NCBI GenBank assembly: GCA_018806915.1
Contig: JAGKQI010000105.1
Coordinates: 1,116,001-1,180,000 of the forward strand
Direction: 5' to 3'
DNA: 64,000 nt
Source: Phytophthora colocasiae
Lineage: Eukaryota > Oomycota > Peronosporomycetes > Peronosporales > Peronosporaceae
The notes beneath the pieces were generated by a model. That model had not been told where the DNA came from and ran no database searches. It saw only the letters and a program-made list of their open reading frames with translations. A program made the translations under genes and the position numbers. Shown one piece after another: positions 20,001 to 56,000 of this stretch (position 1 is the stretch's first letter; every line of letters starts with the position of its first letter).

Positions 20001-23000
20001 GAAGCTCCGGACACGATACTCACAGTGCCTCCGGAAGTGCTAGCTCCAGACGATCCAGCGGAGAGCGTCACACGACCACCACTACCCGTCGAGCTGGAAC
20101 CAGCTCCCACTACAACGTTGCCGCTATCGCTACTTGTGGAGTCGCCAGATATAAGCTGGATCCAGCCACTTGTGCCTAGATTGGTGTTTCCGCTGGCCAT
20201 GATCAAGTCACCAGAGTCACTAGCAGGGCCAGCATTAACGGTGCCAATAGTTACACTGCCAGTGTTCCCATCAGTGCTACCACCAGATGAAATTGCTACG
20301 GATCCACCGACGCTGTTTTTCCCTGATGTTGATCCTCCTTCAAGGGAGATGCTGCCACCGTGGTCACCGCTATCTCCAACACCAACGACAATATTGCCGG
20401 CTTGACCATTAGGCGCATCTCCCGAAACAATTTGAACACTTCCGGACGAGCTTGATTTCGAAGCTCCTGTCTCGATCGATACAGAACCAGTTGATGCCAT
20501 ACCATTTCTAGTTGCAAAAGCCTCCGAATCCGCGCTAGATACAATGACGTCACCACTCTTTTCAGGCAAGTTAGCCGAAACATGGAAGCGGCGATGTTGA
20601 GCATGGATTGCAGCAACAAGGTCAAGAATGACCTTCTGCTTGTCGATTTGGTGGAAGTTCATGAGGCTAAAATCGCTCTCGTTCAGGTAAAAGTCCCCGA
20701 CGCTCACGTACTCGGGGAAAGTTTCGTGGGCTTGCTGGGCAATAACACCTCTTACAACTGAATCCTCGATACCGCGGATTCTTCTCCACTCATCAGTGTA
20801 TCGATATTGCTTGATTTCAAGAGACTGCAACCGCTGAAGAATATCGTCCTCGTCCACGTCTTCGATGTCAGTCTTGATGCGTCGATCTGAAGGAGATATA
20901 ACTTGTGGGAATTGAGCTGGCACCGTGCCAACAACCATGTCTTTTCGAACACGGAACACGATACCATCCGCAGTACCGGAGCCCGGGTTCTCAAATAGAG
21001 TTTCTTCTGTGGATGTCTGTTTAACAAACCTACCGTCGAGTGACACATCAGATCCATCACTTGTCACGGAGACACGCCCGTCACTTCCAACATCAATCGA
21101 ACCCTTCCGATCCCCAGATATTAATGCGATTGATCCGCCAACAGCCCCACTTCCAGCAGAAACTGAAACATCGCCACTGCTAGAATCATCAGAACTCGAA
21201 TACGTCTTCAGCTGTAGATTTCCAGGAGTGCCTGAACTGGATTGACCAGTTTCCATAAGAACATCACCACCGATGCCACTAGACGACGAGCCGCCAGCTA
21301 CCGTGACAGCACCGCCAGGTCCGCTTGACGAAGAAGAACCGCCGGTCACGGCCACAGACCCCGAAGGACCAGTTGACGAACCGCCACCGATCACCGACAC
21401 ATCGCCTCCGGAACCAGTGTCATCGCTGGAACCACCCACAACGCTCACTGGACCAACGGCACCTGTACTGCTAGTGCCGCTGCCCACACGCACAGCGCCT
21501 GAGTCGCCGTCCACCACGTTGCCAGACACAATCGACACATCGCCAGACACAGACGAAGCACTGGCATCACCGCTCCCGACCGACACAACGCCGCTCGACA
21601 CAACGCCGCCACCGCTAGACACCGACACCGCGCCGCCCGTCGAAAGGCTGCTAACGCCACCAGACACAGACACACTACCCGCGGCTGCAGACGCACTGCC
21701 AGACTGAACAGACACCTCGCCACTGCTAGCTTCGTCTGAAGACCCGGAAGACAGCGTCACCACGCCTGACACAGCGTCAACCGACGAGCCGCTGCTAATT
21801 GACGTCGAGCCGCTCGAGGCGTCACCACTGGCAGAAGCACCGCTCTCAACGCTCACGTTGCCGCTGCCGAGCGACCCCGTGCCAGACAAAATGGCCACAC
21901 CACCGCCGACACCAGCTACGCTCGCACCGCCATCCACGGAAACGCCGCCACCAGTGCCAGCACCCGTCGAGGCCGCACCTCCAGACAAGGAAACGGCTCC
22001 CGCTACGCCAGATGTCGCACTCAGAGAGCCACCGCGAACGTTCACCGAGCCGCCGCCCACACCGTCGTCGGTGCTAGCACCGGCATCCACGTTGATGTTG
22101 CCGCCAAGGTCACTGCGACGAACGCCACTGGACAAGCTCACCACGCCGTCCTCGCCGGACGACACCGTCACGGAGCCACCGCGTGCGCTTGAACCACCAC
22201 TTGAGCCGCCACGGATCTCCACACCGCCAGCATCTGCGTCGCTAACGCCACCGCTTGCAACCACCACACCTCCACTCGAGCCGCTTGCGCTGACACCAGA
22301 CACGACCGACAGCGAACCGGACGTACCGAAAACCGCATCGCCAGTCCCGATGGCCACCTCGCCGCTAGAGCTCGCGCTCGTTGCAGCTGCGCTAGACACC
22401 GTGACGCTTCCGCTGTTCGCGCTGCCTGCACCGCTCTCCAGCGTCACAGAACCTCCTGCAGACGAGTCGCCGCTGCTTCCGCCGCGCATTGACACAGAGC
22501 CACCGCTAGACACAGCACTGTCCCCGCCGACCACACTCACAGATCCAGACGTGCTGTCACTCGAGTCGCCACTGCTCAACGTCACGTCACCGGACACGCC
22601 GTCAGATGAAGTGCCACTCGCCACATACACAGACCCGCTCGCGCTGCCTGCAGACGAACCCAGCGTCACATCACCGCTGACAACAGACGCGTCATCGCTG
22701 CCCCCGCTTAAGATGGACACCGACCCGCCCTGCACGACACCAGCACCACCGGACACAGACACCTCGCCGCCAACGTTGACCCCTGCAGAACGGCCACCCG
22801 TTAACCGAACAGCGCCTGCCACGGCTCCAACAGAAGGCACCGTAGACAGCAGAGACGAACCGCCCGTCAACAGTACGTCACCCGCCGCCGATTCACTACT
22901 GGACCCACTGCGCACCTCAATGTCGCCGCCGTCGGCCTTAGACAGACCCACCGACAAGGTAATGCCGCCAGCGGAAGCACTCTCGCTCGACGCAGAGCCG

Positions 23001-26000
23001 GACGAGATATGCACTTCGCCCGACACCACGCCATCCGAGCTCACCAGCCGCACTCCACCACTGCTGCTCAGACCTTCTCCGCTGCGCAACACTAGTGAGG
23101 CTCCAGCGTCCGACGAACTCTCGCCGCCAGACACGGTCACGTCACCGCCCGTTGCACCAGCACCACCGGTCAAAGCCAACGACCCGCCGACAGCACCAGA
23201 GCTGCTGCCGCCCGTCACGCGCACGAGACCACCGTCAGCAGTCGCATCGCCGCCAAACACGCTCACCGACCCGCTTGCCTGTTCTGGCGACGCGCCAGAC
23301 GCGATCGACACAGCGCCAGACGAACCGGTGGACGCCGACCCACTCGATACAGACACGGCACCACTCACGGTTGTGCTCGCGCCGCCTTCAGAACCGAGCG
23401 TCACGGACCCACTCTCCGCCGACAAACCGTCGCCGCTCACGATCGTCACGCTACCGCCCGTCAATCCCGACGCGCCACCTCGCACGCTCACAGTGGAGCC
23501 CTCGCCCGCCGTCGTCAATGAACCACCAGCCACCTCGATGAACCCAGCACTAGAGCCACCGGAACCGGTACCGATACGAACCGATCCGCTAGACACACTG
23601 CTAGCGCTGGTGTGCACATCGATATCGCCACTCGAACCGCCGGGCACGACATTCGTCGACAACGTCACGCCACCGCTGTTCAGGGAGCCAACGCCGCTAG
23701 TCACCAGCACAGACCCTCCCGTGTTCATCTCGGACGACCCGCCATCAATCGACACGTCGCCGCCATCTCCCTGCGCGTTCGCAGATCCGACGATCTTCAC
23801 CTTTTGAGCCGCGGCCGCGCTGTGCACACTGCCGCCGACCAACTCCACGTCGCTGCCGACATCAGTACTGTCGCCCTGCATGAGCTGCAGGCTGCCGCCA
23901 GAACCGCTACGGACAAACACACTACTGCCAGCCGCGCCGCTGCCGGACTCGCCGCTCGACACACTCACATCACCGCCGACGCTACTAGGCGACGAGCCGC
24001 CAGCTACCGTGACAGCACCGCCAGGTCCGCTTGACGAAGAAGAACCGCCGGTCACGGCCACAGACCCCGAAGGACCAGTTGACGAACCGCCACCGATCAC
24101 CGACACATCGCCTCCGGAACCAGTGTCATCGCTGGAACCACCCACAACGCTCACTGGACCAACGGCACCTGTACTGCTAGTGCCGCTGCCCACACGCACA
24201 GCGCCTGAGTCGCCGTCCACCACGTTGCCAGACACAATCGACACATCGCCAGACACAGACGAAGCACTGGCATCACCGCTCCCGACCGACACAACGCCGC
24301 TCGACACAACGCCGCCACCGCTAGACACCGACACCGCGCCGCCCGTCGAAAGGCTGCTAACGCCACCAGACACAGACACACTACCCGCAGCTGTAGACGC
24401 GCTGCCAGACTGAACAGACACCTCGCCACTGCTAGCTTCGTCTGAAGACCCGGAAGACAGCGTCACCACGCCTGACACAGCGTCAACCGACGAGCCGCTG
24501 CTAATTGACGTCGAGCCGCTCGAGGCGTCACCACTGGCAGAAGCACCGCTCTCAACGCTCACGTTGCCGCTGCCGAGCGACCCCGTGCCAGACAAAATGG
24601 CCACACCACCGCCGACACCAGCTACGCTCGCACCGCCATCCACGGAAACGCCGCCACCAGTGCCAGCACCCGTCGAGGCCGCACCTCCAGACAAGGAAAC
24701 GGCTCCCGCTACGCCAGATGTCGCACTCAGAGAGCCACCGCGAACGTTCACCGAGCCGCCGTCCACACCGTCGTCGGTGCTAGCACCGGCATCCACGTTG
24801 ATGTTGCCGCCAAGGTCACTGCGACGAACGCCACTGGACAAGCTCACCACGCCGTCCTCGCCGGACGACACCGTCACGGAGCCACCGCGTGCGCTTGAGC
24901 CGCCACTTGAGCCGCCACGGATCTCCACATCGCCAGCATCCTCGTCGTTAACGGCACCGCTTGCAACGACCACATCTCCGCTCGAGCCACTTGCGCTGAC
25001 ACCAGACACGACCGACAGCGAACCGGACGTACCGAAAACCGCATCGCCAGTCCCGATGGCCACCTCGCCGCTAGAGCTCGCGCTCGTTGCAGCTGCGCTA
25101 GACACCGTGACGCTTCCGCTGTTCGCGCTGCCTGAACCGCTCTCCAGAGTCACAGAACCTCCTGCAGACGAGTCGCCGCTGCTTCCGCCGCGCATTGACA
25201 CAGAGCCACCGCTAGACGCAGTACTGTCCCCGCCGACCACACTCACAGATCCAGACGTGCTGTCACTCGAGTCGCCACTGCTCAACGTCACGTCACCGGA
25301 CACGCCGTCAGATGAAGTGCCACTCGCCACAAACACAGACCCGCTCGCGCTGCCTGCAGACGAACCCAGCGTCACATCACCGCTGACAACAGACGCGTCA
25401 TCGCTGCCCCCGCTTAAGATGGACACCGACCCGCCCTGCACGACACCAGCACCACCGGACACAGACACCTCGCCGCCAACGTTGACCCCTGCAGAACGGC
25501 CACCCGTTAACCGAACAGCGCCTGCCACGGCTCCAACAGAAGGCACCGTAGACAGCAGAGACGAACCGCCCGTCAACAGTACGTCACCCGCCGCCGATTC
25601 ACTGCTGGACCCACTGCGTACCTCAATGTCGCCGCCGTCGGCCTTAGACAGACCCACCGACAAGGTAATGCCGCCAGCGGAAGCACTCTCGCTCGACGCA
25701 GAGCCGGACGAGATATGCACTTCGCCCGACACCACGCCATCCGAGCTCACCAGCCGCACTCCACCACTGCTGCTTGGACCTTCTCCGCTGCGCAACGCTA
25801 GTGAGGCTCCAGCGCCCGACGAACTCTCGCCGCCAGACACGGTCACGTCACCGCCCGTTGCACCAGCACCACCGGTCAAAGCCAACGACCCGCCGACAGC
25901 ACCAGAGCTGCTGCCGCCCGTCACGCGCACGAGACCACCGTCAGCAGTCGCATCGCCGCCAAACACGCTCACCGACCCGCTTGCCTGTTCTGGCGACGCG

Positions 26001-29000
26001 CCAGACGCGATCGACACAGCGCCAGACGAACCGGTGGACGCCGACCCACTCGATACAGACACGGCACCACTCACGGTTGTACTCGCGCCGCCTTCAGAAC
26101 CGAGCGTCACCGACCCACTCTCCGCCGACAAACCGTCGCCGCTCACGATCGTCACGCTACCGCCCGTCAATCCCGACGCGCCACCTCGCACGCTCACAGT
26201 GGAGCCCTCGCCCGCCGTCGACGAACCACCAGCTACCTCGATGAACCCAGCACTAGAGCCACCGGAACCGGTACCGATACGAACCGATCCGCTAGACACA
26301 CTGCTAGCGCTGGTGTGCACATCGATGTCGCCACTCGAACCGCCGGGCACGACATTCGTCGACAACGTCACGCCACCGCTGTTCAGGGAGCCAACGCCGC
26401 TAGTCACCAGCACAGACCCTCCCGTGTTCATCTCGGACGACCCGCCATCAATCGACACGTCGCCGCCATCTCCCTGCGTGTTCGCAGATCCGACGATCTT
26501 CACCTTTTGAGCCGCGGCCGCGCTGTTCACACTGCCGCCGACCAACTCCACGTCGCTGCCGACATCAGTACTGTCGCCCTGCATGAGCTGCAGGCTGCCG
26601 CCAGAACCGCTACGGACAAACACACTACTGCCAGCCGCGCCGCTGCCGGACTCGCCGCTCGACACACTCACATCACCGCCGACGCTACTAGGCGACGAGC
26701 CGCCAGATACCGTGACAGCACCGCCAGGGCCGCTCGATGAAGAAGAACCGCCGGTCACGGCCACAGACCCCGAAGGACCAGTTGACGAACCGCCACCGAT
26801 CACCGACACATCGCCTCCGGAACCAGTGTCATCGCTGGAACCACCCACAACGCTCACTAGACCAATGGCACCTGTACTGCTAGTGCCGCTGCCCACACGC
26901 ACAGCGCCTGAGTCGCCGTCCACCACGTTGCCAGACACAATCGACACATCGCCAGACACAGACGAAGCACTGGCATCACCGCTCCCGACCGACACAACGC
27001 CGCTCGACACAACGCCACCACCGCTAGACACCGACACCGCGCCGCCTGTCGAAAGGCTGCTAACGCCACCAGACACAGACACACTACCCGCAGCTGTAGA
27101 CGCGCTGCCAGACTGAACAGACACCTCGCCACTGCTAGCTTCGCCTGAAGATCCGGAAGACAGCGTCACCACGCCCGACAAAGCGTCTACCGACGAGCCG
27201 CTGCTAATTGACGTCGAGCCGCTCGAGGCGTCACCACTGGCAGAAGCACCGCTCTCAACGCTCACGCTGCCGCTGCCGAGCAACCCCGTGCCAGACAAAA
27301 TGGCCACACCACCGCCGACACCAGATACGCTCGCACCGCCATCCACGGAAACGCCGCCACCAGTGCCAGCACCCGTCGAGGCCGCACCTCCAGACAAGGA
27401 AACGGCTCCCGCTACGCCAGATGTCGCACTCAGAGAGCCACCGCGAACGTTCACCGAGCCGCCGCCCACACCGTCGTCGGCGCTAGCACCGGCATCCACG
27501 TTGATGTTGCCGCCAAGGTCACTGCGACGAACGCCACTGGACAAGCTCACCACGCCGTCCTCGCCGGACGACACCGTCACGGAGCCACCGCGTGCGCTTG
27601 AGCCGCCACTTGAGCCGCCACGGATCTCCACATCGCCAGCATCCTCGTCGTTAACGGCACCGCTTGCAACGACCACATCTCCGCTCGAGCCGCTTGCGCT
27701 GACACCAGACACGACCGACAGCGAACCGGACGCACCGGAAGCCGCATCGCCAGTGCCAATGGCCACCTCGCCGCTAGAGCTCGCGCTCGTTGCAGCTGCG
27801 CTAGACACCGTGACGCTTCCGCTGTTCGCGCTGCCTGAACCGCTCTCCAGAGTCACAGAACCTCCTGCAGACGAGTCGCCGCTGCTTCCGCCGCGCATTG
27901 ACACAGAGCCACCGCTAGACACAGCACTGTCCCCGCCGACCACACTCACAGATCCAGACGTGCTGTCACTCGAGTCGCCACTGCTCAACGTCACGTCACC
28001 GGACACGCCGTCAGATGAAGTGCCACTCGCCACATACACAGACCCGCTCGCGCTGCCTGCAGACGAACCCAGCGTCACATCACCGCTGACAACAGACGCG
28101 TCATCGCTGCCCCCGCTTAAGATGGACACCGACCCGCCCTGCACGACACCAGCACCACCGGACACAGACACCTCGCCGCCAACGTTGACCCCTGCAGAAC
28201 GGCCACCCGTTAACCGAACAGCGCCTGCCACGGCTCCAACAGAAGGCACCGTAGACAGCAGAGACGAACCGCCCGTCAACAGTACGTCACCCGCCGCCGA
28301 TTCACTACTGGACCCACTGCGCACCTCAATGTCGCCGCCGTCGGCCTTAGACAGACCCACCGACAAGGTAATGCCGCCAGCGGAAGCACTCTCGCTCGAC
28401 GCAGAGCCGGACGAGATATGCACTTCGCCCGACACCACGCCATCCGAGCTCACCAGCCGCACTCCACCACTGCTGCTTGGACCTTCTCCGCTGCGCAACG
28501 CTAGTGAGGCTCCAGCGCCCGACGAACTCTCGCCGCCAGACACGGTCACGTCACCGCCCGTTGCACCAGCACCACCGGTCAAAGCCAACGACCCGCCGAC
28601 AGCACCAGAGCTGCTGCCGCCCGTCACGCGCACGAGACCACCGTCAGCAGTCGCATCGCCGCCAAACACGCTCACCGACCCGCTTGCCTGTTCTGGCGAC
28701 GCGCCAGACGCGATCGACACAGCGCCAGACGAACCGGTGGACGCCGACCCACTCGATACAGACACGGCACCACTCACGGTTGTGCTCGCGCCGCCTTCAG
28801 AACCGAGCGTCACGGACCCACTCTCCGCCGACAAACCGTCGCCGCTCACGATCGTCACGCTACCGCCCGTCAATCCCGACGCGCCACCTCGCATGCTCAC
28901 AGTGGAGCCCTCGCCCGCCGTCGACGAACCACCAGCTACCTCGATGAACCCAGCACTAGAGCCACCGGAACCGGTACCGATACGAACCGATCCGCTAGAC

Positions 29001-32000
29001 ACACTGCTAGCGCTGGTGTGCACATCGATGTCGCCACTCGAACCGCCGGGCACGACATTCGTCGACAACGTCACGCCACCGCTGTTCAAGGAGCCAACGC
29101 CGCTAGTCACCAGCACAGACCCTCCCTGTGTTCATCTCGGACGACCCGCCATCAATCGACACGTCGCCGCCATCTCCCTGCGCGTTCGCAGATCCGACGA
29201 TCTTCACCTTTTGAGCCGCGGCCGCGCTGTGCACACTGCCGCCGACCAACTCCACGTCGCTGCCGACATCAGTACTGTCGCCCTGCATGAGCTGCAGGCT
29301 GCCGCCAGAACCGCTACGGACAAACACACTACTGCCAGCCGCGCCGCTGCCGGACTCGCCGCTCGACACACTCACATCACCGCCGACGCTACTCGGCGAC
29401 GAGCCGCCAGATACCGTTACAGCACCGCCTGGTCCGCTCGATGAAGAAGAACCGCCGGTCACGGCCACAGACCCCGAAGGACCAGTTGACGAACCGCCAC
29501 CGATCACCGACACATCGCCTCCGGAACCAGTGTCATCGCTGGAACCACCCACAACGCTCACTGGACCAACGGCACCTGTACTGCTAGTGCCGCTGCCCAC
29601 ACGCACAGCGCCTGAGTCGCCGTCCACCACGTTGCCAGACACAATCGACACATCGCCAGACACAGACGAAGCACTGGCATCACCGCTCCCCGACCGACAC
29701 AACGCCGCTCGACACAACGCCACCACCGCTAGACACCGACACCGCGCCGCCTGTCGAAAGGCTGCTAACGCCACCAGACACAGACACACTACCCGCAGCT
29801 GTAGACGCGCTGCCAGACTGAACAGACACCTCGCCACTGCTAGCTTCGTCTGAAGATCCGGAAGACAGCGTCACCACGCCCGACAAAGCGTCTACCGACG
29901 AGCCGCTGCTAATTGACGTCGAGCCGCTCGAGGCGTCACCACTGGCAGAAGCACCGCTCTCAACGCTCACGCTGCCGCTGCCGAGCAACCCCGTGCCAGA
30001 CAAAATGGCCACACCACCGCCGACACCAGATACGCTCGCACCGCCATCCACGGAAACGCCGCCACCAGTGCCAGCACCCGTCGAGGCCGCACCTCCAGAC
30101 AAGGAAACGGCTCCCGCTACGCCAGATGTCGCACTCAGAGAGCCACCGCGAACGTTCACCGAGCCGCCGCCCACACCGTCGTCGGCGCTAGCACCGGCAT
30201 CCACGTTGATGTTGCCGCCAAGGTCACTGCGACGAACGCCACTGGACAAGCTCACCACGCCGTCCTCGCCGGACGACACCGTCACGGAGCCACCGCGTGC
30301 GCTTGAGCCGCCACTTGAGCCGCCACGGATCTCCACATCGCCAGCATCCTCGTCGTTAACGGCACCGCTTGCAACGACCACATCTCCGCTCGAGCCGCTT
30401 GCGCTGACACCAGACACGACCGACAGCGAACCGGACGCACCGGAAGCCGCATCGCCAGTGCCAATGGCCACCTCGCCGCTAGAGCTCGCGCTCGTTGCAG
30501 CTGCGCTAGACACCGTGACGCTTCCGCTGTTCGCGCTGCCTGAACCGCTCTCCAGAGTCACAGAACCTCCTGCAGACGAGTCGCCGCTGCTTCCGCCGCG
30601 CATTGACACAGAGCCACCGCTAGACACAGCACTGTCCCCGCCGACCACACTCACAGATCCAGACGTGCTGTCACTCGAGTCGCCACTGCTCAACGTCACG
30701 TCACCGGACACGCCGTCAGATGAAGTGCCACTCGCCACAAACACAGACCCGCTCGCGCTGCCTGCAGACGAACCCAGCGTCACATCACCGCTGACAACAG
30801 ACGCGTCATCGCTGCCCCCGCTTAAGATGGACACCGACCCGCCCTGCACGACACCAGCACCACCGGACACAGACACCTCGCCGCCAACGTTGACCCCTGC
30901 AGAACGGCCACCCGTTAACCGAACAGCGCCTGCCACGGCTCCAACAGAAGGCGCCGTAGACAACAGCAGAGACGAACCGCCCGTCAACAGTACGTCACCC
31001 GCCGCCGATTCACTGCTGGACCCACTGCGTACCTCAATGTCGCCGCCGTCGGCCTTAGACAGACCCACCGACAAGGTAATGCCGCCAGCGGAAGCACTCT
31101 CGCTCGACGCAGAGCCGGACGAGATATGCACTTCGCCCGACACCACGCCATCCGAGCTCGCCAGCCGCACTCCACCACTGCTGCTCAGACCTTCTCCGCT
31201 GCGCAACGCTAGCGAGGCTCCAGCGCCCGACGAACTCTCGCCGCCAGACACGGTCACGTCACCGCCCGTTGCACCAGCACCACCGGTCAAAGCCAACGAC
31301 CCGCCGACAGCACCAGAGCTGCTGCCGCCCGTCACGCGCACGAGACCACCGTCAGCAGTCGCATCGCCGCCAAACACGCTCACCGACCCGCTTGCCTGCT
31401 CTGGCGACGCGCCAGACGCGATCGACACAGCGCCAGAAGAACCGGTGGACGCCGACCCACTCGATACAGACACGGCACCACTCACGGTTGTGCTCGCGCC
31501 GCCTTCAGAACCGAGCGTCACGAACCCACTCTCCGCCGACAAACCGTCGCCGCTCACGATCGTCACGCTACCGCCCGTCAATCCCGACGCGCCACCTCGC
31601 ATGCTCACAGTGGAGCCCTCGCCCGCCGTCGACGAACCACCAGCTACCTCGATGAACCCAGCACTAGAGCCACCGGAACCGGTACCGATACGAACCGATC
31701 CGCTAGACACACTGCTAGCGCTGGTGTGCACATCGATATCGCCACTCGAACCGCCGGGCACGACATTCGTCGACAACGTCACGCCACCGCTGTTCAGGGA
31801 GCCAACGCCGCTAGTCACCAGCACAGACCCTCCCGTGTTCATCTCGGACGACCCGCCATCAATCGACACGTCGCCGCCATCTCCCTGCGCGTTCGCAGAT
31901 CCGACGATCTTCACCTTTTGAGCCGCGGCCGCGCTGTGCACACTGCCGCCGACCAACTCCACGTCGCTGCCGACATCAGTACTGTCGCCCTGCATGAGCT

Positions 32001-35000
32001 GCAGGCTGCCGCCAGAACCGCTACGGACAAACACACTACTGCCAGCCGCGCCGCTGCCGGACTCGCCGCTCGACACACTCACATCACCGCCGACGCTACT
32101 AGGCGACGAGCCGCCAGCTACCGTGACAGCACCGCCAGGTCCGCTTGACGAAGAAGAACCGCCGGTCACGGCCACAGACCCCGAAGGACCAGTTGACGAA
32201 CCGCCACCGATCACCGACACATCGCCTCCGGAACCAGTGTCATCGCTGGAACCACCCACAACGCTCACTGGACCAACGGCACCTGTACTGCTAGTGCCGC
32301 TGCCCACACGCACAGCGCCTGAGTCGCCGTCCACCACGTTGCCAGACACAATCGACACATCGCCAGACACAGACGAAGCACTGGCATCACCGCTCCCGAC
32401 CGACACAACGCCGCTCGACACAACGCCACCACCGCTAGACACCGACACCGCGCCGCCTGTCGAAAGGCTGCTAACGCCACCAGACACAGACACACTACCC
32501 GCGGCTGCAGACGCACTGCCAGACTGAACAGACACCTCGCCACTGCTAGCTTCGTCTGAAGATCCGGAAGACAGCGTCACCACGCCCGACAAAGCGTCTA
32601 CCGACGAGCCGCTGCTAATTGACGTCGAGCCGCTCGAGGCGTCACCACTGGCAGAAGCACCGCTCTCAACGCTCACGCTGCCGCTGCCGAGCAACCCCGT
32701 GCCAGACAAAATGGCCACACCACCGCCGACACCAGATACGCTCGCACCGCCATCCACGGAAACGCCGCCACCAGTGCCAGCACCCGTCGAGGCCGCACCT
32801 CCAGACAAGGAAACGGCTCCCGCTACGCCAGATGTCGCACTCAGAGAGCCACCGCGAACGTTCACCGAGCCGCCGCCCACACCGTCGTCGGCGCTAGCAC
32901 CGGCATCCACGTTGATGTTGCCGCCAAGGTCACTGCGACGAACGCCACTGGACAAGCTCACCACGCCGTCCTCGCCGGACGACACCGTCACGGAGCCACC
33001 GCGTGCGCTTGAGCCGCCACTTGAGCCGCCACGGATCTCCACATCGCCAGCATCCTCGTCGTTAACGGCACCGCTTGCAACGACCACATCTCCGCTCGAG
33101 CCGCTTGCGCTGACACCAGACACGACCGACAGCGAACCGGACGCACCGGAAGCCGCATCGCCAGTGCCAATGGCCACCTCGCCGCTAGAGCTCGCGCTCG
33201 TTGCAGCTGCGCTAGACACCGTGACGCTTCCGCTGTTCGCGCTGCCTGAACCGCTCTCCAGAGTCACAGAACCTCCTGCAGACGAGTCGCCGCTGCTTCC
33301 GCCGCGCATTGACACAGAGCCACCGCTAGACGCAGTACTGTCCCCGCCGACCACACTCACAGATCCAGACGTGCTGTCACTCGAGTCGCCACTGCTCAAC
33401 GTCACGTCACCGGACACGCCGTCAGATGAAGTGCCACTCGCCACAAACACAGACCCGCTCGCGCTGCCTGCAGACGAACCCAGCGTCACATCACCGCTGA
33501 CAACAGACGCATCATCGCTGCCCCCGCTTAAAACGGACACCGACCCGCCCTGCACGACACCAGCACCACCGGACACAGACACCTCGCCGCCAACGTTGAC
33601 CCCTGCAGAACGGCCACCCGTTAACCGAACAGCGCCTGCCACGGCTCCGGCGGAAGGCGCCGTAGACAACAGAGACGAACCGCCCGTCAACAGTACTTCA
33701 CCCGCCGCCGATTCACTGCTGGACCCACTGCGTACCTCAATGTCGCCGCCGTCGGCCTTAGACAGACCCACCGACAAGGTAATGCCGCCAGCGGAAGCAC
33801 TCTCGCTCGACGCAGAGCCGGACGAGATATGCACTTCGCCCGACACCACGCCATCCGAGCTCGCCAGCCGCACTCCACCACTGCTGCTCAGACCTTCTCC
33901 GCTGCGCAACGCTAGCGAGGCTCCAGCGCCCGACGAACTCTCGCCGCCAGACACGGTCACGTCACCGCCCGTTGCACCAGCACCACCGGTCAAAGCCAAC
34001 GACCCGCCGACAGCACCAGAGCTGCTGCCGCCCGTCACGCGCACGAGACCACCGTCAGCAGTCGCATCGCCGCCAAACACGCTCACCGACCCGCTTGCCT
34101 GCTCTGGCGACGCGCCAGACGCGATCGACACAGCGCCAGAAGAACCGGTGGACGCCGACCCACTCGATACAGACACTGCACCACTCACGGTTGTACTCGC
34201 GCCGCCTTCAGAACCGAGCGTCACCGACCCACTCTCCGCCGACAAACCGTCGCCGCTCACGATCGTCACGCTACCGCCCGTCAATCCCGACGCGCCACCT
34301 CGCACGCTCACAGTGGAGCCCTCGCCCGCCGTCGACGAACCACCAGCTACCTCGATGAACCCAGCACTAGAGCCACCGGAACCGGTACCGATACGAACCG
34401 ATCCGCTAGACACACTGCTAGCGCTGGTGTGCACATCGATGTCGCCACTCGAACCGCCGGGCACGACATTCGTCGACAACGTCACGCCACCGCTGTTCAA
34501 GGAGCCAACGCCGCTAGTCACCAGCACAGACCCTCCCGTGTTCATCTCGGACGACCCGCCATCAATCGACACGTCGCCGCCATCTCCCTGCGCGTTCGCA
34601 GATCCGACGATCTTCACCTTTTGAGCCGCGGCCGCGCTGTTCACACTGCCGCCGACCAACTCCACGTCGCTGCCGACATCAGTACTGTCGCCCTGCATGA
34701 GCTGCAGGCTGCCGCCAGAACCGCTACGGACAAACACACTACTGCCAGCCGCGCCGCTGCCGGACTCGCCGCTCGACACACTCACATCACCGCCGACGCT
34801 ACTAGGCGACGAGCCGCCAGATACCGTGACAGCACCGCCAGGGCCGCTCGATGAAGAAGAACCGCCGGTCACGGCCACAGACCCCGAAGGACCAGTTGAC
34901 GAACCGCCACCGATCACCGACACATCGCCTCCGGAACCAGTGTCATCGCTGGAACCACCCACAACGCTCACTAGACCAACGGCACCTGTACTGCTAGTGC

Positions 35001-44000: not shown

Positions 44001-47000
44001 ACCTCGCCGCTAGAGCTCGCGCTCGTTGCAGCTGCGCTAGACACCGTGACGCTTCCGCTGTTCGCGCTGCCTGAACCGCTCTCCAGAGTCACAGAACCTC
44101 CTGCAGACGAGTCGCCGCTGCTTCCGCCGCGCATTGACACAGAGCCACCGCTAGACGCAGTACTGTCCCCGCCGACCACACTCACAGATCCAGACGTGCT
44201 GTCACTCGAGTCGCCACTGCTCAACGTCACGTCACCGGACACGCCGTCAGATGAAGTGCCACTCGCCACAAACACAGACCCGCTCGCGCTGCCTGCAGAC
44301 GAACCCAGCGTTACATCACCGCTGACAACAGACGCATCATCGCTGCCCCCGCTTAAAACGGACACCGACCCGCCCTGCACGACACCAGCACCACCGGACA
44401 CAGACACCTCGCCGCCAACGTTGTCTCCGGCAGAACGGCCACCAGTTAACCGAACAGCGCCTGCCACGGCTCCGGCAGAAGGCGCCGTAGACAACAGAGA
44501 CGAACCGCCCGTCAACAGTACGTCACCCGCCGCCGATTCACTGCTGGACCCACTGCGTACCTCAATGTCGCCGCCGTCGGCCTTAGACAGACCCACCGAC
44601 AAGGTAATGCCGCCAGCGGAAGCACTCTCGCTCGACGCAGAGCCGGACGAGATATGCACTTCGCCCGACACCACGCCATCCGAGCTCACCAGCCGCACTC
44701 CACCACTGCTGCCTAGGCCTTCTCCGCTGCGCAACGCTAGCGAGGCTCCAGCGCCCGACGAACTCTCGCCACCAGACACGGTCACGTCACCGCCCGTTGC
44801 ACCAGCACCACCGGTCAAAGCCAACGACCCGCCGACAGCACCAGAGCTGCTGCCGCCCGTCACGCGCACGAGACCACCGTCAGCAGTCGCATCACCGCCA
44901 AACACGCTCACCGACCCGCTTGCCTGCTCTGGCGACGCGCCAGACGCGATCGACACAGCGCCAGAAGAACCGGTGGACGCCGACCCACTCGATACAGACA
45001 CGGCACCACTCACGGTTGTACTCGCGCCGCCTTCAGAACCGAGCGTCACCGACCCACTCTCCGCCGACAAACCGTCGCCGCTCACGATCGTCACGCTACC
45101 GCCCGTCAATCCCGACGCGCCACCTCGCACGCTCACAGTGGAGCCCTCGCCCGCCGTCGTCGATGAACCACCAGCCACCTCGATGGACCCAGCACTAGAG
45201 CCACCGGAACCGGTACCGATACGAACCGATCCGCTAGACACGCTGCTAGCGCTGGTGTGCACATCGATGTCGCCACTCGAACCTCCAGACACGACATTCG
45301 TCGACAACGTCACGCCACCGCTGTTCAGGGAGCCAACGCCGCTAGTCAGCAACACAGACCCTCCCGTGTTCATCTCGGACGACCCGCCATCAATCGACAC
45401 GTCGCCGCCATCTCCCTGCGCGTTCGCAGATCCGACGATCTTCACCTTTTGAGCCGCAGCCGCGCTGTTCACACTGCCGCCGACCAACTCCACGTCGCTG
45501 CCGACATCAGTACTGTCGCCCTGCATGAGCTGCAGACTGCCGCCAGAACCGCTACGGACAAACACACTACTGCCAGCCGCGCCGCTACCGGACTCGCCGC
45601 TCGACACACTCACATCACCGCCGACGCTACTAGGCGACGAGCCGCCAGATACCGTGACAGCACCGCCAGGGCCGCTCGATGAAGAAGAACCGCCGGTCAC
45701 GGCCACAGACCCCGAAGGACCAGTTGACGAACCGCCACCGATCACCGACACATCGCCTCCGGAACCAGTGTCATCGCTGGAACCACCCACAACGCTCACT
45801 AGACCAACGGCACCTGTACTGCTAGTGCCGCTGCCCACACGCACAGCGCCTGAGTCGCCGTCCACCACGTTGCCAGACACAATCGACACATCGCCAGACA
45901 CAGACGAAGCACTGGCATCACTGCTCCCGACCGACACAACGCCGCTCGACACAACGCCACCACCGCTAGACACCGACACCGCGCCGCCTGTCGAAAGGCT
46001 GCTAACGCCACCAGACACAGACACACTACCCGCAGCTGTAGACGCGCTGCCAGACTGAACAGACACCTCGCCACTGCTAGCTTCGTCTGAAGATCCGGAA
46101 GACAGCGTCACCACGCCCGACAAAGCGTCTACCGACGAGCCGCTGCTAATTGACGTCGAGCCGCTCGAGGCGTCACCACTGGCAGAAGCACCGCTCTCAA
46201 CGCTCACGCTGCCGCTGCCGAGCAACCCCGTGCCAGACAAAATGGCCACACCACCGCCGACACCAGATACGCTCGCACCGCCATCCACGGAAACGCCGCC
46301 ACCAGTGCCAGCACCCGTCGAGGCCGCACCTCCAGACAAGGAAACGGCTCCCGCTACGCCAGATGTCGCACTCAGAGAGCCACCGCGAACGTTCACCGAG
46401 CCGCCCATGTACGTCCCTTTGCCTGAAACAATATCAAGTTGCCCACCAACTCCTGAGCTGCTGTTCCCAGAGAAAAGCTGGACAGACCCTCCAGTCACAC
46501 CGACACCAGCACCTGCAGATAGTTGAATCGAGCCTGCCGACACGCTGCTGTCCCCGGACGCGATGCTTACACCACCAGAGAAAGAGGATGCCGAAGATCC
46601 AGTACCGATAGCGATTGTACCACTTGAACCACTGCTGGTCGAAGCTGTACGAAGAGACACTGTAGCAGAAACATCGCTGGTGATGCCTACTGGCGCACCG
46701 GATGAAATATCGACCGTGCCCAGTGACCCTCGCCCGGACGAGATACTCACCGGACCAGCACTACGCATTGTATCCGAGACGCTAGTCGAGATTGTGACTG
46801 AGCCACTGCTGCCAGCAAATTTTGACGCGCCAGCCAGTACGGTGACCGAACCTCCCTTCGACAGACCATTGCCACCACTCACATTGATGTCTCCTCCTGT
46901 GCTGGAGGCTCCACCTGTGACGGCAACACTACCACCTACACCGCCTGCGGAGCTCGACGCACCGCCAACCACGCGCACGGCACCAACCGTCGTAGACGAC

Positions 47001-50000
47001 GTCGAAGCGCCACTGCTGATGAGCACATCTCCAGACACACCGCTGGATGATCTGCCGGATTCGATCTGGACAGTCCCACTAGATGCCGCGGACGACACTC
47101 CAGCCGAGCGCAAGACCGCCTTGCCTGAGTCACCCACAACGGATGTCCCCGACACGACATTCACGCTACCGCCCATTCCCTTCGAGCTGTCACCTGCATT
47201 AACAAGTACACTGCCTCCACTACCGGTCGATGAAAAGCCTCCTGTGACAGATGTCAACCCCACGCTCGTCTCTCCGTCGCCAGTTGTCAGCGTCGTGTTA
47301 CCGCTTCCACGTCCCTTGATACCGGAGCTTGACGCGATTGAAACATCGCCAGAGGCACCACCTGCCGAAGACCCGGACACGATACTCACAGTGCCGCCGG
47401 GTGCGCTAGCTCCAGATGACCCAGCAGAGAGCGTCACACGACCACCACTACCCGTCGAGCTGGAACCAGCTCCCACCACAACGTTGCCACTGTTGCCGCT
47501 AGCTGAATCACCGGAACGTAGGTCGACGAGACCACTCGATCCGACGCCAATACCTCGGCCAGAAGCTACGCTTACATTTCCACCCACTGTACTCGAGTCA
47601 CCGGTCGCCACTGAGACTGCACCGGACGAACCGACAGCAGTCGTTCCTGATATAAGCGTCACCGATCCAGAGCTCACGCTGCCTACCCCACCACCAGACG
47701 AGATGCCCACGCTACCACTAGCTTGTCCGTCGCTCGCTCCAGACTGCAGGTACACTGCTCCGCCACGACCGACACTTGACCGGCCACCAGAAACTGCCAC
47801 ATTACCAACCACGTCACGTGCCGCGCCTGATGATATCGACACGACACCACTTGATCCTTGGCTGCCACTGCCAGATGAAATATCGACGCGTCCGCCTGCA
47901 GTCGAGTTGCGAGTAGACATCGAGATTGCGCCAGACGTCATACCCGCTCCAGAAACAACGTCGAGTCGTCCACCCACACCAGAGCTGCTGTTCCCAGAGA
48001 AAAGCTGGATAGACCCTCCAGTCACACCGACACCAGCACCTGCAGATAGTTGAATCGAGCCTGCCGACACGCTGCTGTCCCCGGACGCGATGCTTACACC
48101 ACCAGAGAAAGAGGATGCCGAAGATCCAGTACCGATAGCGATTGTACCACTTGAACCACTGCTGGTCGAAGCTGTACGAAGAGACACTGTAGCAGAAACA
48201 TCGCTGGTGATGCCTACTGGCGCACCGGATGAAATATCGACCGTGCCCAGTGACCCTCGCCCGGACGAGATACTCACCGGACCAGCACTACGCATTGCAT
48301 CCGAAACGCTAGTCGAGATTGTGACTGAACCACTGCTGCCAGCAAATTTTGACGCGCCAGCCAGTACGGTGACCGAACCTCCCTTCGACAGACCATTGCC
48401 ACCACTCACATTGATGTCTCCTCCTGTGCTGGAGGCTCCACCTGTGACGGCAACACTACCACCTACACCGCCTGCGGAGCTCGACGCACCGCCAACCACG
48501 CGCACGGCACCAACCGTCGTAGACGACGTCGAAGCGCCACTGCTGATGAGCACATCTCCAGACACACCGCTGGATGATCTGCCGGATTCGATCTGGACAG
48601 TCCCGCTAGACGCCGCGGACGACACTACAGCCGAGCGCAAGACCACTTTGCCCGAGTCACCCACAACGGATGTCCCCGACACGACATTCACGCTACCGCC
48701 CATTACCTTCGAGCTGTCACCCGCATTAACAAGTACATTGCCTCCACTACCGGTCGACGAAAAGCCTCCTGTGACAGATGTCAACCCCACGCTCGTCTCT
48801 CCGTCGCCAGTTGTCAGCGTCGTGTTACCGCTTCCACGTCCCTTGATACCGGAGCTCGACGCGATTGACACGTCACCAGAGGCACCAGCCGCCGAAGCTC
48901 CGGACACGATACTCACAGTGCCTCCGGGCGCACTAGCTCCAGATGACCCAGCAGAGAGCGTCACACGACCACCACTACCCGTCGAGCTGGAACCAGCTCC
49001 CACCACAACGTTACCACTGTTTCCGCTAGCTGAATCACCGGAGCGTAGGTCGACGAGACCACTCGATCCGGCGCCAACACCTCGGCCAGAAGCTACGCTT
49101 ACATTTCCGCCCACTGTACTCGAGCCACCGGTCGCCACTGAGACTGCACCGGACGAACCGACAGCAGTCGTTCCTGATGTCAGCGTCACCGATCCAGAGC
49201 TCACGCTGCCTACGCCACCACCAGATGAGATGCCCACGCTACCACTAGCTTGTCCGTCGCTCGCTCCAGACTGCAGGTACACTGCTCCGCCACGACCGAC
49301 ACTTGACCGGCCACCAGAAACTGCCACATTGCCGACCACGTCGCGTGCCGCGCCTGATGATATCGACACGACCCCACTCGATCCTTGGCTGCCACTGCCA
49401 GATGAAATATCGACGCGTCCGCCTGCAGTCGAGTTGCGAGTAGACATCGAGATTGCGCCAGACGTCATACCCGCTCCAGAAACAACGTCGAGTCGTCCAC
49501 CCACACCAGAGCTGCTGTTCCCAGAGAAAAGCTGGACAGACCCTCCAGTCACGCCGACACCAGCACCTGCAGATAGTTGAATCGAGCCTGCCGACACGCT
49601 GCTGTCCCCGGACGCGATGCTTACACCGCCAGAGAAAGAGGATGCCGAAGATCCAGTACCGATAGCGATTGTGCCACTTGAACCACTGCTGGTCGAAGCT
49701 GTACGAAGAGACACTGTAGCAGAAACATCGCTGGTGACGCCTACTGGCGCACCGGATGAGATATCAACCGTGCCCAGTGACCCTCGCCCGGACGAGATAC
49801 TCACCGGACCAGCACTACGCATTGCATCCGAAACGCTAGTCGAGATTGTGACTGAACCACTGCTGCCAGCAAATTTTGACGCGCCAGCCAGTACGGTGAC
49901 CGAACCTCCCTTCGACAGACCATTGCCACCACTCACATTGATGTCTCCTCCTGTGCTGGAGGCTCCCCCTGCGACGGCAACAGTACCACCGATACCACTT

Positions 50001-53000
50001 GCGGAGCTCGACGCACCGCCAACCACGCGCACGGCACCGACCGTCGTAGAAGACGTCGAAGCGCCACTGCTGATGAGCACATCTCCAGACACACCGCTGG
50101 ATGATCTGCCGGATTCGATCTGGACAGTCCCGCTAGACGCCGCGGACGACACTACAGCCGAGCGTAAGACCACTTTGCCCGAGTCACCCACAACGGATGT
50201 CCCCGACACGACATTCACGCTACCGCCCATTACCTTCGAGCTGTCACCCGCATTAACAAGTACATTGCCTCCACTACCGGTCGACGAAAAGCCTCCTGTG
50301 ACAGATGTCAACCCCACGCTCGTCTCTCCGTCGCCAGTTGTCAGCGTCGTGTTACCGCTTCCACGTCCCTTGATACCGGAGCTCGACGCGATTGACACGT
50401 CACCAGAGGCACCAGCCGCCGAAGCTCCGGACACGATACTCACAGTGCCTCCGGGCGCACTAGCTCCAGATGACCCAGCAGAGAGCGTCACACGACCACC
50501 ACTACCCGTCGAGCTGGAACCAGCTCCCACCACAACGTTACCACTGTTTCCACTATCTCCACTCTTAGAGTTTCCAGACACAAGCTTAATCGACCCACTA
50601 GTGCCTAGATTGGTATTTCCAGTCGCCATGAACAAATCTCCAGAGACACCGGATGGGCCAGCATTAGCTGTAATGATAGTTATACTGCCAGTGTTCCCAT
50701 CAGCGCTACCACCAGATGAAATAGCTACGGATCCACCGACGCTGTTTTTCCCTGATGTCGATCCTCCTCCAAGGGAGATGCTGCCACCGTGGTCACCGCT
50801 ATCTCCAACACCAACGACAATATTGCCGGCTTGACCATTAGGCGCATCTCCCGAAACAATTTGAACACTTCCGGACGAGCTTGATTCCGAAGCTCCTGTC
50901 TCGATCGATACAGACCCAGTTGATGCCATACCATTTCTAGTTGCAAAAGTTTCCGAATCCGCGCTAGATACAATGACGTCACCACTCTTTTCAGGCAAGT
51001 TAGCCGAAACATGGAAGCGGCGATGTTGAGCATGGATTGCAGCAACAAGGTCAAGAATGACCTTCTGCTTGTCGATTTGGTGGAAGTTCATGAGGCTAAA
51101 ATCGCTCTCGTTCAGGTAAAAGTCCCCGACGCTCACGTACTCGGGGAAAGTTTCGTGGGCTTGCTGGGCAATAACGCCTCTTACAACTGAATCTTCGATA
51201 CCGCGGATTCTTCTCCACTCATCAGTGTATCGATATTGCTTGATTTCAAGAGACTGCAACCGCTGAAGAATATCGTCCTCGTCCACGTCTTCGATGTCAG
51301 TCTTGATGCGTCGATCTGAAGGAGATATAACTTGTGGGAATTGAGCTGGCACCGTGCCAACAACCATGTCTTTTCGAACACGGAACACGATACCATCCGC
51401 AGTACCGGAGCCCGGGTTCTCAAATAGAGTTTCTTCTGTGGATGTCTGTTTAACAAACCTTCCGTCGAGTGACACATCAGATCCATCACTTGTCACGGAG
51501 ACACGCCCGTCACTTCCAACATCAATCGAACCCTTCCGATCCCCAGATATTAAAGCAATTGATCCGCCACCAGCCCCACTTCCAGCAGAAACTGAAACAT
51601 CGCCACTGCTAGAATCATCAGAACTCGAATACGTCTTCAGCTGTAGATTTCCAGGAGTGCCTGAACTGGATTGACCAGTTTCCATAAGAACATCACCACC
51701 GATGCCACTAGACGATGACCCGCCTGATACCGTGACAGCACCGCCAGGGCCGCTCGATGAAGAAGAACCGCCGGTCACGGCCACAGACCCCGAAGGACCA
51801 GTTGACGAACCGCCACCGATCACCGACACATCGCCTCCGGAACCAGTGTCATCGCTGGAACCACCCACAACGCTCACTAGACCAACGGCACCTGTACTGC
51901 TAGTGCCGCTGCCCACACGCACAGCGCCTGAGTCGCCGTCCACCACGTTGCCAGACACAATCGACACATCGCCAGACACAGACGAAGCACTGGCATCACC
52001 GCTCCCGACCGACACAACGCCGCTCGACACAACGCCACCACCGCTAGACACCGACACCGCGCCGCCTGTCGAAAGGCTGCTAACGCCACCAGACACAGAC
52101 ACACTACCCGCAGCTGTAGACGCGCTGCCAGACTGAACAGACACCTCGCCACTGCTAGCTTCGTCTGAAGATCCGGAAGACAGTGTCACCACGCCCGACA
52201 AAGCGTCTACCGACGAGCCGCTGCTAATTGACGTCGAGCCGCTCGAGGCGTCACCACTGGCAGAAGCACCGCTCTCAACGCTCACGTTGCCGCTGCCGAG
52301 CGACCCCGTGCCAGACAAAATGGCCACACCACCGCCGACACCAGCTACGCTCGCACCGCCATCCACGGAAACGCCGCCACCAGTGCCAGCACCCGTCGAG
52401 GCCGCACCTCCAGACAAGGAAACGGCTCCCGCTACGCCAGATGTCGCACTCAGAGAGCCACCGCGAACGTTCACCGAGCCGCCGCCCACACCGTCGTCGG
52501 CGCTAGCACCGGCATCCACGTTGATGTTGCCGCCAAGATTACTGCGACGAACGCCACTGGACAAGCTCACCACGCCGTCCTCGCCGGACGACACCGTCAC
52601 GGAGCCACCGCGTGCGCTTGAGCCGCCACTTGAGCCGCCACGGATCTCCACATCGCCAGCATCCTCGTCGTTAACGGCACCGCTTGCAACGACCACATCT
52701 CCGCTCGAGCCGCTTGCGCTGACACCAGACACGACCGACAGCGAACCGGACGCACCGGAAGCCGCATCGCCAGTGCCAATGGCCACCTCGCCGCTAGAGC
52801 TCGCGCTCGTTGCAGCTGCGCTAGACACCGTGACGCTTCCGCTGTTCGCGCTGCCTGAACCGCTCTCCAGAGTCACAGAACCTCCTGCAGACGAGTCGCC
52901 GCTGCTTCCGCCGCGCATTGACACAGAGCCACCGCTAGACGCAGTACTGTCCCCGCCGACCACACTCACAGATCCAGACGTGCTGTCTCTCGAGTCGCCA

Positions 53001-56000
53001 CTGCTCAACGTCACGTCACCGGACACGCCGTCAGATGAAGTGCCACTCGCCACAAACACAGACCCGCTCGCGCTGCCTGCAGACGAACCCAGCGTTACAT
53101 CACCGCTGACAACAGACGCATCATCGCTGCCCCCGCTTAAAACGGACACCGACCCGCCCTGCACGACACCAGCACCACCGGACACAGACACCTCGCCGCC
53201 AACGTTGTCTCCGGCAGAACGGCCACCCGTTAACCGAACAGCGCCTGCCACGGCTCCGGCGGAAGGCGCCGTAGACAACAGAGACGAACCGCCCGTCAAC
53301 AGTACGTCACCCGCCGCCGATTCACTGCTGGACCCACTGCGTACCTCAATGTCGCCGCCGTCGGCCTTAGACAGACCCACCGACAAGGTAATGCCGCCAG
53401 CGGAAGCACTCTCGCTCGACGCAGAGCCGGACGAGATATGCACTTCGCCCGACACCACGCCATCCGAGCTCGCCAGCCGCACTCCACCACTGCTGCCTAG
53501 GCCTTCTCCGCTGCGCAACGCTAGCGAGGCTCCAGCGCCCGACGAACTCTCGCCGCCAGACACGGTCACGTCACCGCCCGTTGCACCAGCACCACCGGTC
53601 AAAGCCAACGACCCGCCGACAGCACCAGAGCTGCTGCCGCCCGTCACGCGCACGAGACCACCGTCAGCAGTCGCATCGCCGCCAAACACGCTCACCGACC
53701 CGCTTGCCTGCTCTGGCGACGCGCCAGACGCGATCGACACAGCGCCAGAAGAACCGGTGGACGCCGACCCACTCGATACAGACACTGCACCACTCACGGT
53801 TGTACTCGCGCCGCCTTCAGAACCGAGCGTCACCGACCCACTCTCCGCCGACAAACCGTCGCCGCTCACGATCGTCACGCTACCGCCCGTCAATCCCGAC
53901 GCGCCACCTCGCACGCTCACAGTGGAGCCCTCGCCCGCCGTCGTCGATGAACCACCAGCCACCTCGATGGACCCAGCACTAGAGCCACCGGAACCGGTAC
54001 CGATACGAACCGATCCGCTAGACACGCTGCTAGCGCTGGTGTGCACATCGATGTTGCCACTCGAACCTCCAGACACGACATTCGTCGACAACGTCACGCC
54101 ACCGCTGTTCAGGGAGCCAACGCCGCTAGTCAGCAACACAGACCCTCCCGTGTTCATCTCGGACGACCCGCCATCAATCGACACGTCGCCGCCATCTCCC
54201 TGCGCGTTCGCAGATCCGACGATCTTCACCTTTTGAGCCGCAGCCGCGCTGTTCACACTGCCGCCGACCAACTCCACGTCGCTGCCGACATCAGTACTGT
54301 CGCCCTGCATGAGCTGCAGACTGCCGCCAGAACCGCTACGGACAAACACACTACTGCCAGCCGCGCCGCTGCCGGACTCGCCGCTAGACACACTCACATC
54401 ACCGCCGACGCTACTAGACGACGAGCCGCCAGATACCGTGACAGCACCGCCAAGGCCGCTCGATGAAGAAGAACCGCCAGTTACGTTGATAGTGCCAGCT
54501 GTACCTGATGCAGTAGCCCCAGTTTGAATTGCTATCGAACCTGCACGTTCTGAATTGGTTGAACCGGATCGAATCTGAATTCCTCCGGATGTACTTGAGA
54601 TGGCGTCACCAGTTTCCATGAGTACTTGCCCAGTTGCACTTGCATCCGACGCTTGTGTTTGAATAGCAATTTTTCCTCCTGTTTCGTGCTCGGCGCTTGG
54701 TGACAAAATTGACATAGCTCCTGACTTCATTTTACCACGTCCTGACGCAATAGTCACGTTGCCACCAAGGTTGTCGGATTCACCAGCTTCTACAACCACA
54801 TTCCCTGGTGCATATGAATCAACAGAAATACTAGGATCTCCGCCAGATGTGCGTCCCGATAGAAGAGCTATATCCCCACTCCTCTCAAAACCAGGACCAG
54901 TTTCAAGAATCAAGGAACCAGCTTCTTGGACGCTATCAGCTGAAGCCGTTGAAAGCTTAATATGCCCCGATTTAGTGTCGCCACTAGCACTACGCAACTG
55001 AACATCAGCAGCAGCAGTGGTAATTCGGTCTGTTCCAGAATTAACCAAAAATTCGCCAGAAACGCGAGTAGATGTCGAGGTGACACCAACAACGCCTTTC
55101 GCGCCAGCAAATGAGTCGCCAGTACTTATGGCAATTGACCCACTCTCACCAAATGCAGACCAACCTGTTGTCACGGAGATACTACCGCTGTTTCGACTCC
55201 CACGAGAATCAGGGGTCTGCAAGTTCACATTTCCTGGATTCTCGTAGCTTTCTCCGCTTGCAATCATCACGTTACCAGCTGCTGTCCCACTACCTTGAGA
55301 TGATCCTGCTTCAATTACTATAGACCCACCGTCACCGGCCATACTACTTCCTGCTCGCATGCTGATTGCACCCGAGTTGGCTTGAGCACCCCCACTAGCA
55401 ATATTAACATCTCCGCTTTGACTCAGGCTGGATGATCCTGATTCGATACTGATGCTGCCGCTACTCCCACTAGGGGAAGCCTTAGTGTAGGACCCTGCAT
55501 CTGCTGTACTGATGTCAATCCGCCCGCTTTGCCCTTCACTATTGGGCCCAACCTTGAAGCGCTTGTGTTGGGCGTGAATAGCCGCGATTAAATCCATCGT
55601 TATCTGCTGCTTGTTCACCTCATGGAATTGCTCCAAGCTGAAATTTTTCTCTGGAAGCGAAAGTGTTGATATCGTTACGTATTCAGGAAATGTTTCTTGC
55701 GCTTGTTGAGCAATCACACCACGAACAGTTATATCCGGGATCCCACGAATTTCTCGCCACATCTCCGAATAGCGATATTGTTTTACCTCGAGAGTTTGAA
55801 GACGTTGAAGGATAGCATCTTCGTCAATATCTTCGATATCCGTCTTAATTCGTCGGTCGGACGGGTACGTGATCTCGGTGATTTGTGCAGGCACGTGACT
55901 GATCATCTTGTTTGGCTGGAGTCGCCAAATTACTCCTCCCGGTACAGTGGTTTCTCCATTTGCTACCGTCAGCTCACCACTTTCAACACTGATGCTGATG

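What the first reader, a model, noticed from the sequence alone, without database searches (positions are those of the whole stretch)
20576..55861. Three internal S74 auto-processing domains that could cut one giant chain into separate fibres
In known S74 proteins (phage endosialidase tailspikes, MYRF) the domain trimerises the chain and then self-cleaves just before the Ser of S-D-x-x-x-K. Phage copies are usually C-terminal. Here three copies with intact Ser and Lys at the right spacing lie inside one chain, each followed by thousands of bases of coil code. Cleavage at Ser 55861, 51319 and 20890 would give an N-terminal part and pieces of about 1,510, 10,140 and >6,960 residues, each later piece carrying an S74 domain at its N-terminus. 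This suggests a self-processing polyprotein that makes several trimeric fibres in fixed ratio. I know of no described example.
Basis: partly seen in the sequence, partly recalled or inferred. Interest (0 to 1): 0.88.

Follow-up and report, generated by a model that had tools for sequence, protein, structure and literature searches.

The report
Giant self-cutting oomycete fibre protein
An oomycete (water mould) genome carries a giant glycine-serine repeat gene with two intact copies of the self-cleaving domain of phage tail fibres and human MYRF inside one unbroken reading frame, and a third that likely belongs to the same gene, so that the protein, predicted to be secreted, would likely assemble as trimers and cut itself into several separate fibres.

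The parts
61038..64000 (-). exon 1 of the giant gene (its Met is at 65658, outside the window, in L005): predicted signal region, weak PSI match, then glycine-serine repeats
60968..61037 (-). putative intron 1, 70 nt, GTACGT...ACACAG
   Evidence: splicing keeps the frame; no transcript evidence
60386..60967 (-). exon 2, glycine-serine repeats
60322..60385 (-). putative intron 2, 64 nt, GTAGGT...AATTAG
41333..60321 (-). uninterrupted coding frame with S74-1 and S74-2; with exons 1 and 2 gives 8,064 residues (arithmetic)
55550..55861 (-). S74-1 (MYRF-type ICA domain); predicted cut before the Ser of codon 55859-55861, residue 3222
51008..51319 (-). S74-2; predicted cut before the Ser of codon 51317-51319, residue 4736
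20579..20890 (-). S74-3, recent duplicate of S74-2 (0 amino-acid differences in 109 codons)
51690..54485 (-). isolated copy of the 2.7 kb repeat (array A type)
46422..50555 (-). array B, 1.53 kb units, first block, about 2.7 units
21261..46405 (-). array A, about 9 units of 2.7 kb, 97-99% identical; contains the four frame breaks between S74-2 and S74-3
12572..20122 (-). array B, second block, about 5 units of 1.5 kb
1..10313 (-). array C, 1.26 kb units, continuing outside the window to about -11799
14861..29131 (-). second long open stretch (4,757 codons) holding S74-3
9543..13016 (-). open stretch of 1,158 codons, mostly outside the arrays, glycine-serine repeats

Best explanation
The locus is an oomycete gene for a giant, predicted secreted, glycine-serine repeat protein with internal MYRF-type ICA (Peptidase_S74) domains, each of which would likely trimerise the chain and then cut it just before its Ser, so that one precursor would likely become several separate trimeric fibre pieces. 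Shown: the three domains, their intact Ser and Lys, their MYRF-like sequence and predicted fold, two of them in one unbroken frame, strong constraint on S74-1 and S74-2, and a related repeat protein in a green-alga protein set. Inferred: that the frame breaks further on are assembly errors, so that S74-3 and about 27,400 residues belong to one chain; that the domains trimerise and cut; that the repeats form extended beta-rich fibres; that the cuts would give an N-terminal piece of 3,221 residues (signal region included), one of 1,514, and one or two longer pieces, each later piece starting with an ICA domain as a trimer cap. The ICA trimers would act as folding checkpoints along a chain too long to find its register from its ends, and would release a segment only once its trimer had formed.
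Against: No protein or transcript data for this locus. Four frame breaks lie between S74-2 and S74-3 and 27 more follow; I could not see reads. No trimer was modelled; the helix after the ICA core is short (residues 134-154 of the model), whereas MYRF trimerisation is driven mainly by a C-terminal triple coiled coil (PMC8326128, passages). The repeat model failed (mean pLDDT 58.9, almost no strand), so the fibre fold is unproved. The cut site is the longest identical run between S74-1 and S74-2 (12 residues), but a run of 12 or more arises in 18% of shuffles. The algal relative shows no S74 in its 3,798 residues. No other oomycete could be searched.
Confidence: 0.6

Rival explanations
1. The S74 domains trimerise and register the giant chain but cut little or not at all, acting as internal clamps of one continuous fibre.
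For: The domains are flanked on both sides by the same kind of repeats, as if set into a continuous rod; no trimer model or cleavage data exist.
Against: Ser, Asp, Arg and Lys of the cutting motif are kept in all three copies; in MYRF Ser and Lys are indispensable for cutting (PMC8326128, passages).
Confidence: 0.22
2. The locus is a decaying pseudogene: the frame breaks are real and only fragments are made.
For: 31 frame breaks counted on the assembled path.
Against: They all lie in near-identical arrays and none in the other 20.6 kb; both ends and all S74 copies are intact; S74-1/S74-2 show purifying selection.
Confidence: 0.1
3. The chain ends soon after 41.3 kb and the arrays beyond belong to other genes, so that only two S74 domains share a protein.
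For: First frame break at about 41.3 kb.
Against: The same 2.7 kb unit runs across that break. I made no search for other gene starts beyond it.
Confidence: 0.06
4. It is an integrated viral (polinton-like or giant-virus) fibre gene.
For: S74 is common in polinton-like virus fibres, with single copies often C-terminal, and such elements are reported in Phytophthora genomes (PMC12220804, passages).
Against: Putative introns, 82 kb length, and a leucyl-tRNA synthetase reading frame ending about 200 bases from its stop. Of 8 flanking ORFs scanned with Pfam, 2 were that synthetase, 1 Helitron-like, 1 Pif1-like, 1 transposase and 3 without a match. No viral profile search of the flanks was made.
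Confidence: 0.02

Closest known systems
MYRF / Dictyostelium MrfA ICA domain
   Same: Internal Peptidase_S74 domain in a eukaryotic protein; Pro before the motif, Ser, Arg and Lys kept in the PDB construct alignment apart from its Ser (read Ala there); longer loops; best sequence and fold match
   Different: MYRF has one ICA, a DNA-binding domain and a membrane span, and makes a transcription factor; here up to three ICA domains in a predicted secreted repeat protein in which neither was found
Phage fibre S74 chaperones (endosialidase 3gw6, T5 L-shaped fibre 4uw8, neck appendage 3gud)
   Same: Same family and fold
   Different: Known as C-terminal chaperones (PMC3742443 and PMC10769870, passages); the cut removes the chaperone, it does not divide a chain into long pieces. 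Best phage records match S74-1 at 26-34% identity over 42-61% of the query (the 20 listed of 30)
Bdellovibrio MAT adhesive trimeric fibres (PMC10769870)
   Same: Fibre proteins with a signal peptide and self-cutting S74, Ser mutant uncut (passages)
   Different: Typically about 1,000 residues, terminating in S74, bacterial
Polinton-like virus fibres (PMC12220804)
   Same: Peptidase_S74 in large modular proteins of elements of eukaryotes, up to 3.9 k residues (passages)
   Different: Single copies, often C-terminal; viral
P0001, Nephroselmis pyriformis repeat protein (MMETSP0034_2)
   Same: Same glycine-serine repeat family with shared unit order
   Different: No Pfam family, so no S74, in the 3,798 residues held
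Phytophthora Lpv vesicle glycoproteins (PMC3869178)
   Same: Very large oomycete glycoproteins (>400 kDa) held in zoospore vesicles (passages)
   Different: Sequences not compared here

Membership tests
Peptidase_S74 / ICA domain | Profile match above the curated cut-off | tested here: met
Peptidase_S74 / ICA domain | Ser-Asp-x-x-x-Lys catalytic motif | tested here: met
   three of three copies
Peptidase_S74 / ICA domain | ICA fold | tested here: met
Peptidase_S74 / ICA domain | Homotrimer and self-cleavage before Ser | not testable with these tools
   needs protein; no multimer prediction offered
Peptidase_S74 / ICA domain | Trimeric beta-helix stalk upstream | tested here: inconclusive
   model residues 1-41 mostly below pLDDT 50; repeat model mean 58.9
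MYRF transcription factors | DNA-binding domain upstream of the ICA | tested here: not met
   none in exon 1 or in 5,000 of the 6,331 codons of the exon 3 frame; exon 2 not scanned
MYRF transcription factors | Transmembrane segment after the ICA | tested here: not met
   no 19-residue window over 1.6 in the four stretches tested; simple hydropathy, and not the whole locus
Phage-type C-terminal S74 fibre | S74 at the C-terminus | tested here: not met
   over 4,700 residues of unbroken frame follow S74-1 and over 3,200 follow S74-2; control: 31 of 31 examined matches have at most 123 residues between match and stop

The most novel reading that the evidence does not exclude
A cellular structural polyprotein of about 27,400 residues, among the largest proteins of any organism, divides itself at three MYRF-type ICA domains into four giant trimeric fibres, with each ICA acting as a co-translational folding checkpoint and then as the N-terminal cap of the next fibre: a way of building megadalton fibres in fixed ratio from one message.
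Probability: 0.4. Interest if true: 0.88.

Novelty: new variant of a known kind. Interest (0 to 1): 0.74.

Why it matters
S74/ICA is described, in the passages I saw, as a C-terminal chaperone of phage-like fibres or a single internal cutter in MYRF. Several intact copies inside one giant predicted secreted chain would be a new use: self-processing of a structural polyprotein in a cellular organism. It would explain how very long homotrimers keep register, add a further kind of protein to the eukaryotic ICA proteins, and give oomycete surface biology a candidate fibre. It is directly testable with small constructs. No paper describing a chain with several S74 domains came up in the eight searches aimed at S74/ICA; this is a weak test, since only open-licence papers are held, the lists were cut (for example 20 of 677, 12 of 133) and one search was spoiled by a term that also means carotid artery.

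Tried and rejected
Phage origin: rejected; the genome is an oomycete's and the locus has putative introns and a host neighbour. Relatives: two protein searches around S74-1 found none at E<=0.01 (874 and 195 candidates); a viral scan with S74-1 alone confirmed none of 10 stretches; the prokaryote scan gave one locus, with a C-terminal S74. A third protein search with residues 1-1700 of the long frame gave the algal P0001 only (839 candidates scored). No other oomycete genome could be searched (one search says it has no relatives here), so spread and age are unknown. The repeat region could not be modelled usefully. NCBIfam gave nothing. PMC11302233 looked relevant but its 'S74' is a page number. 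The PSI match is below its cut-off (21.5 against 23.1 bits). In one search a third comparison failed through a wrong frame and is not used. The frame-path script uses residue composition; it gave 47 events, of which 16 were dropped before the count: 13 at or above 51130 (skips over domains that searches show to be open, and the two introns), 2 at S74-3 and the final stop. Of the 31 kept, 2 were labelled short introns by the script but lie in arrays; some close pairs may be one event, so the count and the 1.3e-4 are approximate. That the unique parts are open rests on the frames themselves.

Full report
What the window is. It lies at 1116001-1180000 of contig C22 in a 92.5 Mb, 105-contig genome. 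Sixty-two elicitin matches, with none in the 14 control genomes, mark it as an oomycete; the species is not known to me. The window lies inside one minus-strand locus that reaches into both flanks: a Met at 65658 (L005) starts the reading and a stop at about -16679 (L011) ends it, about 82 kb in all. A genome search with the first 514 residues listed 79 matches, all inside this locus (84 of 123 candidates were scored), and the last 52 residues match nowhere else. A leucyl-tRNA synthetase reading frame ends about 200 bases away, tail to tail.

Reading frame. Exon 1 runs from 65658 to 61038; two putative introns of 70 and 64 nt (GTACGT...ACACAG at 61037-60968; GTAGGT...AATTAG at 60385-60322) join it to exons 2 and 3, and the spliced frame is open with S74-1 at residue 3222 (other GT-AG pairs also keep the frame open). 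Exon 3 stays open to 41333, so that by arithmetic 8,064 residues can be read without a break, S74-2 being residue 4736. The start has a basic stretch and a hydrophobic core like a signal region (best 15-residue window 1.73; my judgement, no signal tool was run), then a weak PSI match (E 2.9e-4, below cut-off). No membrane-like span was found in the four stretches tested. The 6,331-codon frame contains no Cys.

Frame breaks. After 41333 the assembled sequence changes frame. I counted 31 such places on the path to the stop, 4 before S74-3 and 27 after (with 16 other events dropped as told under Tried and rejected; the count is approximate). All 31 lie in three kinds of near-identical tandem array (2.7, 1.5 and 1.26 kb units), which make up 61.7 of 82.3 kb; none lies in the other 20.6 kb. 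Independent random placement would give that with a chance of 1.3e-4. This fits errors of a long-read assembly in repeats, but I saw no reads, so it is inference. If it is right the chain has about 27,400 residues.

The S74 domains. All three match PF13884 well above the cut-off; a single 5,000-residue unbroken translation holds two of them, and a 4,757-residue one holds the third. S74-2 and S74-3 are identical over 109 codons but for 2 silent changes and lie in an 8 kb block duplicated at 93% identity: S74-3 is a recent copy. S74-1 is old by comparison: 64.5 of 69.3 synonymous sites differ from S74-2, against 58.5 of 257.7 nonsynonymous sites, so both have been kept by selection. The aligned domain keeps 71 of 106 residues (72 of 109 for the core as cut) while the 94 compared columns upstream keep 22 and the 47 downstream keep 18. 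The longest identical run is PSDRRIKTDIED, the cut site; a run of 12 or more arises in 18% of shuffles, so I rest nothing on its length.

Placement control. In 25 viral loci and L038 the S74 match ends at most 77 residues before the stop (26 of 26; L039 and L040 gave the same values and may be one element). In 115 genomes drawn from the class of L038, 8 had S74 (11 matches, one of them L038 itself); of the other 10 I examined 5, in 3 genomes, and they have 50-123 residues after the match, one of them at the end of a 25,189-codon open frame. The giant's copies are followed by thousands of residues. Paper passages agree for polinton-like viruses (single copies often C-terminal; PMC12220804) and Bdellovibrio fibres (13 of 21 MAT proteins terminate in S74; PMC10769870).

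The repeats. Strand-like motifs recur at about 15 residues: of 273 spacings in the 6,331-codon frame 161 are 13-17 and 96 exactly 15. The only protein at E<=1e-5 in one search (839 candidates scored) is a 3,798-residue sequence labelled by EukProt with an MMETSP identifier and taxid 156128, Nephroselmis pyriformis (E 1.4e-212); MMETSP is, as I recall, a transcriptome project. Its unit order matches: its residues from 1001 on score 145.8 and 136.2 bits against two stretches of this gene, above all 40 unit-shuffled versions of each (maxima 78.5 and 121.4). Pfam finds no family in it. So the repeat family is shared by an oomycete and a green alga; its union with S74 I have seen only here. A monomer model of the repeats failed (mean pLDDT 58.9).

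How it most likely works. Inferred: the chain enters the secretory path, three chains align, each ICA trimer locks the register of the segment before it, and once formed cuts before its Ser. S74-1 would free an N-terminal piece of 3,221 residues (signal region included), S74-2 a piece of 1,514, S74-3 (if in frame) one of about 10,143, leaving about 12,523 with the C-terminal module. Whether the pieces separate or stay stacked is open. A surface coat, adhesive or flagellar-hair role is a guess; nothing here tests it.

Limits. No transcript, proteome, reads or second oomycete were available. The verdict on cutting rests on homology and conservation. The literature searches cover an open-licence library only and their lists were cut.

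Noticed in passing
L001 / G000:C22:92022-94655 (+): A second S74 gene in the same genome: EGF-like domain, C-terminal S74 with a coiled-coil-like tail and ASDERFK motif; lacks the MYRF-type loops.
   Followed up: partly
L065 (G101:C34:133000-146000): A bacterial genome of about 2.4 Mb has a 25,189-codon open frame ending in a C-terminal S74, 100 residues before the stop.
   Followed up: partly
P0001 (protein): Nephroselmis pyriformis sequence of 3,798 residues with the same glycine-serine super-repeat order; the repeat family spans distant eukaryotes.
   Followed up: partly
10313 down to -11799 (outside the window): Array of about 17 units of 1.26 kb, about 99% identical, coding in the same direction; looks like a very recent expansion.
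   Followed up: partly
15072-20405 (+): Long antisense open frame of 1,777 codons, most likely a by-product of the codon bias of the repeats.
   Followed up: no
L013:7947-9998 (+), L005:3841-4596 (-), L005:6008-7672 (+): Helitron-like, Pif1-helicase and IS4-type transposase pieces on the two sides of the giant gene.
   Followed up: no
   Followed up: no
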